This document shows, in pieces, positions 32,794 through 34,465 of a stretch of DNA of 64,000 nt. Source of the stretch: Syncephalastrum monosporum B8922 (lineage: Eukaryota; Mucoromycota; Mucoromycetes; Mucorales; Syncephalastraceae). Location of the stretch: positions 21,629 to 85,628 of the forward strand of contig JNEN01001204.1 in the NCBI GenBank assembly GCA_000697355.1, written 5' to 3'. Each line of letters begins with the position of its first letter. The stretch's first letter is position 1. Below the pieces are notes generated by a model that searched no databases, was not told the origin of the DNA, and worked only from the letters and a program-made list of their open reading frames with translations. Position numbers and translations under genes: made by a program.

Positions 32794-34465
32794 ATGAGAG
32801 AAATCATCCACGTCCAAGCTGGTAGGTGCCATCCCACTCACTCCGTCATCGCATTCGCTCATTCGTTCACTGTCACAACTTTTAGGTCAATGCGGTAACC
32901 AGGTACAATTCTATAAGCTTCTACTTTTTACTTCTGCTTCTGCTTCTGCCTCCTGCTTCTCCTCCCAGCGTGCAGCTAGCCTGAAAAGCAGGAGGAACTT
33001 CACGGGGAACGAGAAGAGGGTGAACCAGGAGAAACACGTGTTGACGCTTTCTTCTTTATTTTTCTCGGCTCTAGATCGGTCAAAAGTTCTGGGAGACCAT
33101 CAGCGAGGAGCATGGCATTGATCCCAACGGTAACTACTGCGGTGACAACGATTTGCAGTTGGAGCGCATCAACGTGTTCTACAACGAGGGTTACCAGGGT
33201 AAATACGTCCCTAGGTAAGAAATAAGAATATCAGGGGACGCAGCTGCAAGGGGGTTGTTGAGTTGGTTGTGCTGACATACAACACCATCGGGTGATAAAG
33301 ATCGGTGATCGTTGACTTGGAGCCTGCGACGATGGATGCCATCCGCTCGAGCAAGTACGGCAAGCTGTTCCGCCCCGACAACTTCATCAACGCCCAGTCC
33401 GGTGCGGGTAACTCTTGGGCCAAGGGTTACTACACCGAGGGTGCCGAGCTCGTCGAGTCGGTCATGGACGTCGTCCGCAAGGAGGCCGAGTCGACCGACT
33501 GCCTGCAGGGCTTCCAGCTTGCGCACTCGCTGGGTGGTGGTACTGGCTCCGGCATGGGCTCGCTCCTCCTCTCCAAGATCCGCGAGGAGTACCCTGACCG
33601 TATCCTGTCCACCTACTCCGTCGTGCCCTCCCCCAAGGTCTCCGACACCGTCGTCGAGCCCTACAACGCCGTCCTCTCCGTCCACCAGCTCGTCGAGAAC
33701 TGCGATGCCACCTTCTGCATTGACAACGAGGCCCTCTATGACATCTGCTTCCGCACCCTCAAGCTCACCAACCCTGGCTACGGCGACCTGAACCAGCTTG
33801 TCTCGGCCGTCATGTCCGGTGTCTCGACCAGCTTGCGTTTCCCTGGTCAGCTCAACTCGGACCTGCGTAAGCTGTGCGTCAACATGGTGCCCTTCCCCCG
33901 TCTCCATTTCTTCATGGTCGGCGTTGCTCCTCTGACCGCCTTCAACTCGCAGCAGTACCGCAACCTCAGCGTCCCTGAGCTCACCGCTCAGATGTTCGAC
34001 GCCCGCAACATGATGGCCGCGTCTGACCCCCGCCACGGTCGCTACCTGACCGTCGCCACCATGTTCCGTGGTAAGCTCTCGACGAAGGAGGTCGAGAACC
34101 AGATGCTGGCTGTCCAGCAGAAGAACTCGGCCTACTTTGTCGAGTGGATCCCCAACAGCGTCAAGTCGTCGCTGTGTGACATTCCTCCCGTCGGCCTCAA
34201 GATGTCGGGTACCTTCATCGGTAACTCGACCGCCATCCAGGATCTGTTCAAGCGCGTCAACGAGCAGTTCACGGCCATGTTCCGCCGCAAGGCTTTCTTG
34301 CACTGGTACACTGGCGAGGGTATGGACGAGATGGAGTTCACCGAGGCCGAGTCCAACATGAACGATCTCGTCTCCGAGTACCAGCAGTACCAGGAGGCCA
34401 CCATCGACGAAGACTACGAGGAGGAGTACGTCGAGGAGGACGAGGAAGAGCCCATGGAGGAGTAA
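32794..34465 (+). CDS. TUB2: Beta-tubulin
   Basis: Four exons (32794-32821, 32886-32902, 33075-33214, 33301-34465) give 449 residues, the usual length. Exon 2 has 17 nt. The start MREIIHVQAG-QCGNQ-IGQKFWE is built from three exons and carries the MREI autoregulation tetrapeptide. The GTP-binding loop GGGTGSGMG and tubulin signatures (FRPDNF, SVVPSPKVSDTVVEPYNA, NMVPFPRLHFF, FLHWYTGEGMDEMEF) are present. The acidic tail is DEDYEEEYVEEDEEEPMEE. It polymerises with alpha-tubulin into microtubules. Counting against standard numbering without gaps, residue 167 is Tyr (STYSVV) and residue 198 is Ala (VENCDATF), where benzimidazole-sensitive fungi have Phe and Glu; Phe200 is kept. A short pyrimidine-rich promoter precedes it and TRAPPC12 follows after 153 bases. 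Confidence 0.97.

What the first reader, a model, noticed from the sequence alone, without database searches (positions are those of the whole stretch)
33301..34465. Beta-tubulin naturally carries Tyr167 and Ala198
Counting from the spliced start, the sequence reads STYSVVPS and VENCDATFC where benzimidazole-sensitive fungi and nematodes have ...TFSVVPS and ...(S/T)DETFC. Phe167Tyr and Glu198Ala are two of the best-known substitutions that cause benzimidazole (benomyl, carbendazim, thiabendazole) resistance. Having both as the resident residues would explain the known poor activity of these compounds against Mucorales. Phe200 is unchanged.
Basis: partly seen in the sequence, partly recalled or inferred. 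Interest (0 to 1): 0.75.

Follow-up and report, generated by a model that had tools for sequence, protein, structure and literature searches.

The report
Mould tubulin with natural drug-resistance residues
This mould's beta-tubulin naturally carries two of the changes that other fungi and worms pick up when they become resistant to benzimidazole drugs, which probably explains why these drugs do little against this group of moulds.

Summary
The spliced 449-residue beta-tubulin has Tyr167, Ala198 and Phe200 with no numbering shift. All four beta-tubulin genes found in this genome carry the pair. So do 25 of 25 named or own Mucorales rows, against 0 of 168 other rows. On a tree built without the three drug sites the states nest: Ala198 marks a clade of Mucorales, Endogone, two Calcarisporiella paralogues and some environmental rows; Tyr167 marks Mucorales; Tyr200 marks Rhizopus. 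The sister clade, Glomeromycotina, is Phe/Glu/Phe. Published phenotypes agree: benzimidazoles do not control Mucor or Rhizopus, but albendazole inhibits Rhizophagus irregularis. Ala198 probably does most of the work; Tyr167 alone looks weak. Causation is not shown, and Mortierella-type rows (Phe/Glu/Phe) do not fit a rule for all zygomycetes. The protein also differs at residues 100 and 227, recalled as rhizoxin and taxane positions. A 2024 paper left the tubulin explanation for Mucor open.

The parts
32794..32821 (+). beta-tubulin exon 1 (start codon)
   Evidence: ATG, donor GTAGGT
32886..32902 (+). beta-tubulin exon 2 (17 bases)
   Evidence: acceptor TTTTAG, donor GTACAA
33075..33214 (+). 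beta-tubulin exon 3
   Evidence: acceptor CTCTAG, donor GTAAGA
33301..34465 (+). beta-tubulin exon 4, with the drug-site residues and the stop codon
   Evidence: acceptor ATAAAG, TAA stop; Pfam Tubulin 8.1e-64 and Tubulin_C 7.4e-41 for the spliced protein
33413..33415 (+). codon 100, TCT, Ser (Asn in 48 of 49 non-Mucorales rows compared; rhizoxin position, recalled)
33614..33616 (+). codon 167, TAC, Tyr
33707..33709 (+). codon 198, GCC, Ala
33713..33715 (+). codon 200, TTC, Phe
33794..33796 (+). codon 227, CAG, Gln (His in 41 of 42 comparison rows; taxane-site position, recalled)

Best explanation
This is an ordinary Mucorales beta-tubulin whose resident residues make it a poor target for benzimidazoles. 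Shown: all four beta-tubulin genes found carry Tyr167 and Ala198; the pair is fixed in the sampled rows of the order; on the gene tree Ala198 marks a wider clade, Tyr167 the Mucorales inside it and Tyr200 the Rhizopus rows inside those, so the simplest order is 198, then 167, then 200. Inferred: loss of the Glu198 side chain removes the main hydrogen-bond contact of the drug in the colchicine-site pocket, so the whole beta-tubulin pool binds benzimidazoles weakly and microtubules keep forming. Tyr167 is a minor addition. Since the state is fixed across an order and shared in part with other groups, it is intrinsic and older than the drugs, not acquired resistance.
For: Residues and numbering. 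Four of four paralogues. Pair in 25 of 25 Mucorales rows against 0 of 168. Nesting on a tree built without sites 167, 198 and 200: Ala198 clade of 29 rows 100/99, Tyr167 clade of 22 rows (21 Mucorales and one environmental) 99/95, Tyr200 clade of 5 Rhizopus rows 98/92, joint clade with Glomeromycotina (Phe/Glu/Phe) 99/96. [quoted passage not shown] thiabendazole ineffective against Mucor and Rhizopus, benomyl against zygomycetes (PMC10975326); benomyl and dichloran cause slight or no inhibition of zygomycotan fungi (PMC10820240). Sister contrast: albendazole inhibits Rhizophagus irregularis, and benomyl and carbendazim are called strong inhibitors of AM colonisation (PMC10696295). Chemistry: Glu198 is the strongest contact in simulations (PMC9374697), and E198A gives high-level resistance in Botrytis (PMC6690993).
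Against: Mortierella-type rows (15 of 15 named) have Phe167, Glu198 and Phe200, although zygomycetes as a whole are described as insensitive, and the same review sentence calls basidiomycetes insensitive too (their residues were not examined here), so other causes of insensitivity probably exist. In PMC9374697 the predicted losses of affinity for the single changes are small (0.47, 0.8 and 0.57 kcal/mol for 167, 198 and 200), and the table gives the E198A model an overall affinity no weaker than wild type (-8.53 against -8.46 kcal/mol). The Mucor test stopped at 4 ug/mL. The enrichment of canonical sites among Mucorales-diagnostic positions depends on the comparison set: P = 0.0025 (2 of 3 sites) or 0.027 (2 of 9 sites) with 42 chosen rows, none with all 168.
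Confidence: 0.7

Rival explanations
1. The residues are lineage markers without much effect, and Mucorales escape benzimidazoles mainly by poor uptake, efflux or metabolism.
For: Mortierella-type rows keep Phe/Glu/Phe, yet zygomycetes as a group are described as insensitive; predicted changes in affinity are small.
Against: E198A alone is tied to high resistance in Botrytis; the Phe/Glu/Phe sister clade is inhibited.
Confidence: 0.17
2. A narrower form of the best explanation: Ala198 alone explains the insensitivity, and Tyr167 is a neutral change that happens to match a resistance substitution.
For: No obvious effect of F167Y in simulations; 20 of 200 rows have Tyr167 with Glu198, among them Echinococcus (P0102, Tyr167/Glu198/Tyr200), which is treated with albendazole (recalled).
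Against: F167Y is one of the three classic resistance-associated substitutions in Haemonchus, and a small loss of affinity is predicted for it (0.47 kcal/mol).
Confidence: 0.45
3. On the history only: the Ala198 clade is an old paralogue. Early fungi had a Glu198 and an Ala198 beta-tubulin, and Mucorales kept only the latter.
For: Calcarisporiella holds both kinds: P0092 and P0164 (Phe/Ala/Phe) inside the clade, P0169 (Phe/Glu/Tyr) and P0182 (Phe/Glu/Phe) outside it. Bifiguratus, which NCBI puts in Endogonales, falls outside the clade that holds Endogone.
Against: Glomeromycotina with Glu198 group with the Ala198 clade (99/96); but several deep branches of the gene tree are weak (80/52 and 89/52), so the tree does not settle it.
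Confidence: 0.3
4. Acquired resistance selected by fungicide use in this strain.
For: The substitutions are those seen in field resistance.
Against: All four paralogues found and 25 of 25 Mucorales rows share them.
Confidence: 0.01

Closest known systems
E198A benzimidazole-resistant beta-tubulin alleles of Ascomycota (e.g. Botrytis cinerea Ben HR)
   Same: Ala at residue 198 of beta-tubulin; Phe at 200 in both (implied for Botrytis by the separate F200Y class).
   Different: Here it is the resident residue of every gene copy found and of the sampled order, together with Tyr167 in the same chain; it was not selected by drug use.
F167Y / E198A / F200Y alleles of nematode isotype-1 beta-tubulin
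   Same: The same three positions; Mucorales rows have the first two, and six of six named Rhizopus rows have all three.
   Different: In nematodes they are polymorphisms under drug selection; here they are fixed and stacked in one chain.
Natural beta-tubulin residue 100 variants linked to rhizoxin resistance in Rhizopus and kin (recalled, Schmitt et al. 2008; paper not held)
   Same: Ser100 in all four copies here and in 24 of 25 named or own Mucorales rows, 0 of 167 other rows.
   Different: A different drug site (recalled); residues 167 and 198 lie near the benzimidazole pocket.

Membership tests
beta-tubulin | tubulin GTPase and C-terminal domains, best match to beta chains | tested here: met
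   Pfam PF00091 8.1e-64 and PF03953 7.4e-41; the 60 chains listed, of 144 matched, bear beta-tubulin or general tubulin names
beta-tubulin | MREI amino terminus and gapless register with solved beta-tubulins | tested here: met
   (three alignments printed)
benzimidazole-insensitive beta-tubulin | non-Glu residue at 198 and/or Tyr at 167 or 200 | tested here: met
   Ala198 and Tyr167 in four of four copies
benzimidazole-insensitive beta-tubulin | no sensitive-type paralogue in the genome | tested here: met
   4 of 4 beta genes found; apart from short exons of these four, further matches are at most 51% identical and are read as alpha- and gamma-tubulins; only the best candidates were scored
benzimidazole-insensitive beta-tubulin | reduced drug binding or drug-tolerant growth of this organism | not testable with these tools
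   needs protein or cultures; data on relatives only, from papers

The most novel reading that the evidence does not exclude
Mucorales beta-tubulin is a naturally multi-poison-insensitive tubulin, assembled stepwise long before any drug: Ala198 first, then Tyr167 with Ser100 (rhizoxin position) on the Mucorales stem, a change of His227 at the taxane site along the way, and Tyr200 last in Rhizopus. If natural tubulin poisons drove this, benzimidazole insensitivity is a by-product. It predicts that Mucorales with Ala198/Phe200 are, like Botrytis E198A strains, unusually sensitive to N-phenylcarbamates such as diethofencarb, and that Rhizopus (Tyr200) is not.
Probability: 0.25. Interest if true: 0.72.

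Novelty: new variant of a known kind. Interest (0 to 1): 0.5.

Why it matters
It gives a concrete target-site reason for the weakness of benzimidazoles against Mucorales, which a 2024 study of Mucor left as an open hypothesis needing genome sequences (PMC10885612). It would explain the contrast with arbuscular mycorrhizal fungi, which benomyl suppresses. It suggests that benomyl or nocodazole may be poor tools in Mucorales cell biology, and that benzimidazoles are unlikely candidates for use against mucormycosis. It also makes a sharp, cheap prediction about N-phenylcarbamates. Finally, residue 198, the main drug contact, has changed at least seven times among the 63 rows of the tree, so sensitivity across early fungi can be predicted and tested.

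Tried and rejected
Numbering shift: rejected, gapless alignment. Sensitive-type paralogue: not found. Acquired resistance: rejected.

Enrichment of classic drug sites among Mucorales-diagnostic positions: first computed with Mucorales defined by the two residues themselves, which is circular (P = 0.0014 and 0.016). Redone with rows chosen by name: P = 0.0025 (2 of 3 sites) and 0.027 (2 of 9 sites) for a 42-row comparison set, but no enrichment against all 168 other rows, where Ala198 (17 of 168) and Tyr167 (21 of 168) each pass the 10% limit. I do not rely on it.

Literature: ten searches, of which some were aimed at drug binding and at mycorrhizal fungi. No listed title or abstract start reports these residues in Mucorales. 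Several lists were cut (20 of 77, 15 of 49, 15 of 778, 15 of 39), and only ten papers were opened, each by passages, one also by its results section; this is not proof of absence. Three looked-up works were not held (for the same paper, 28, 50). Searches added little.

Rows dropped: the first tree used 63 of 196 fetched proteins, hand-picked for named fungi, some environmental rows and outgroups, plus 4 own rows; the second left out four long rows (Gongronella, Clonostachys, Cladochytrium, Entophlyctis). One search left out six unnamed Mucorales-like rows and one alpha-tubulin. No structure was predicted, since solved beta-tubulins align without gaps.

Full report
The gene. The window holds a complete beta-tubulin gene on the + strand, with exons 32794-32821, 32886-32902, 33075-33214 and 33301-34465, all three introns GT..AG, 449 codons and a TAA stop. 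The finding's coordinates are exon 4. Residue 167 is Tyr (TAC), 198 Ala (GCC) and 200 Phe (TTC). The three printed alignments with solved beta-tubulins have no gap from residue 1 to about 434, so the numbering is the standard one.

Paralogues. The assembly (27.5 Mb, 198 contigs) gives four beta-tubulin genes by Pfam and by protein search: the window copy on C134, and copies on C19, C171 and C114 at 90-91% identity. Apart from short exons of these four genes, the other matches are at most 51% identical, which I read as alpha- and gamma-tubulins. After splicing, all four encode Tyr167, Ala198 and Phe200; in the three paralogues the codons are TAC, GCC and TTC as well. They also share Ser100, Gln227 and Ser239.

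How wide it is. Three protein searches, each listing its best 120 of nearly 8000 hits, gave 196 proteins. With the four own proteins, the 200 rows were aligned and read at the drug sites: 138 have Glu198, 48 have Ala198 and 14 something else. Tyr167 together with Ala198 is found in 31 rows: the 4 own, 21 named Mucorales of ten genera (Mucor, Rhizopus, Parasitella, Dichotomocladium, Absidia, Lichtheimia, Halteromyces, Apophysomyces, Cunninghamella, Gongronella) and 6 unnamed environmental rows. Order membership was looked up for Gongronella and Dichotomocladium and is recalled for the others. With rows chosen by name and not by residue, 25 of 25 Mucorales rows have the pair and 0 of 168 other rows do. 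All six named Rhizopus rows also have Tyr200, so they carry all three textbook substitutions in one chain. The five of them that are in the tree lie in one of the two Mucorales paralogue groups, so I cannot say that every Rhizopus copy does. The sample is biased towards relatives of the query, and database clusters at 90% identity hide members.

History. On a maximum-likelihood tree of 63 rows with columns 167, 198 and 200 removed, the states nest. A clade of 29 (support 100/99) is all Ala198: Mucorales, Endogone, two Calcarisporiella paralogues and five environmental rows, one of them among the Mucorales. Within it, a clade of 22 (99/95) is all Tyr167: 21 Mucorales rows and that environmental row. 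Within that, five Rhizopus rows (98/92) are all Tyr200. Its sister, Glomeromycotina with Geosiphon, is Phe/Glu/Phe (joint clade 99/96). A faster tree with four more, long rows shows the same nesting. The simplest order is Glu198Ala, then Phe167Tyr, then Phe200Tyr. Endogone has Tyr200 separately. Residue 198 is labile elsewhere too: Leu or Met in six of six Basidiobolus rows (one also with Tyr167), Met in Sorochytrium, Leu in Spizellomyces, Ala in Cladochytrium, Clonostachys and Bifiguratus; at least seven changes at 198 on the tree. Calcarisporiella has both Ala198 and Glu198 paralogues, and some deep forks are weak, so an old duplication with loss is a live rival to a single substitution (taxonomy).

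Mechanism. In simulations with Ascaris tubulin, Glu198 is the strongest contact of albendazole sulfoxide and is lost in E198A, while F167Y shows no obvious effect; total affinity values barely differ, and predicted losses are 0.47 (F167Y), 0.8 (E198A) and 0.57 (F200Y) kcal/mol (PMC9374697, abstract and passages). In Botrytis, E198A isolates are highly resistant to benzimidazoles and more sensitive than wild type to diethofencarb, while F200Y isolates are moderately resistant to benzimidazoles and resistant to diethofencarb (PMC6690993, passages). I therefore put most weight on Ala198. Twenty of 200 rows have Tyr167 with Glu198, 14 of them animal by name, among them Echinococcus (P0102), which is treated with albendazole (recalled), so Tyr167 alone is not a strong barrier.

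Phenotype. [quoted passage not shown] the authors suggested failure to bind beta-tubulin, noted four beta-tubulin genes in M. circinelloides, and left it to future genome sequencing (PMC10885612, passages and results section). [quoted passage not shown] In contrast, albendazole inhibits root colonisation by Rhizophagus irregularis, and benomyl and carbendazim are described as strong inhibitors of AM fungi (PMC10696295, title and passages). The Rhizophagus row here is Phe167, Glu198, Phe200 (P0067). This is the natural contrast one would want, but it is one pair of clades. Against it, named Mortierella-type rows are Phe/Glu/Phe (15 of 15) though zygomycetes are lumped as insensitive; from memory Mortierella tolerates benomyl, which, if true, needs another cause. 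Basidiomycete tubulins were not examined.

Beyond benzimidazoles. Among the positions where Mucorales differ from nearly all 168 other rows are 100 (Ser in 24 of 25 against 0 of 167) and 227 (Gln in 24 of 25 against 6 of 165). From memory, Asn100 governs rhizoxin binding, and variants at 100 were linked to rhizoxin resistance in Rhizopus and its kin (Schmitt et al. 2008, not held), and His227 is a taxane contact. Ser239 stands where 16 of the 42 comparison rows have Cys and 26 have Ser, so it is not special. The protein therefore looks altered at several small-molecule sites at once. A formal enrichment test of the benzimidazole sites was not robust, so this stays an idea.

Verdict. Observation confirmed; interpretation partly supported. 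Natural target-site insensitivity is a known kind of thing. What is new to me, and not reported in the titles and abstract starts listed by ten literature searches, is its fixation across the sampled rows of an order and in every gene copy found here, its stepwise build-up, and the collateral prediction about diethofencarb.

Noticed in passing
G000:C57:153692-154354 and G000:C61:2278-2940 (L002, L003): Two alpha-tubulin-like loci near contig ends are identical at 3430 of 3431 compared bases: probably one locus assembled twice, or a very recent duplicate.
   Followed up: partly
L011 (G000:C171), second intron: The 17-base exon 2 of the C171 beta-tubulin is followed by GCATGT, a GC..AG intron in place of the usual GT donor.
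   Followed up: no
L009 (G000:C19): The C19 beta-tubulin keeps only the first intron; introns 2 and 3 of the window copy are absent.
   Followed up: no
proteins P0090, P0107, P0124, P0171, P0177, P0185 (Basidiobolus): Six of six Basidiobolus beta-tubulin rows lack Glu198, having Leu (2) or Met (4), one of them with Tyr167, which predicts benzimidazole insensitivity in a second zygomycete line.
   Followed up: partly
protein P0192 (Clonostachys chloroleuca): A divergent Ascomycota beta-tubulin with Ala198, perhaps a second copy giving natural benzimidazole tolerance (a guess).
   Followed up: no
window 34619-36108 (+): Downstream gene with tetratricopeptide repeats, interrupted by introns; looks like a TRAPPC12-like protein by eye (weak TPR match).
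   Followed up: partly
window 36837-37142 (-): Fragment matching Methyltransf_10, RNA methyltransferase (1.5e-8), METTL16-like by eye.
   Followed up: partly
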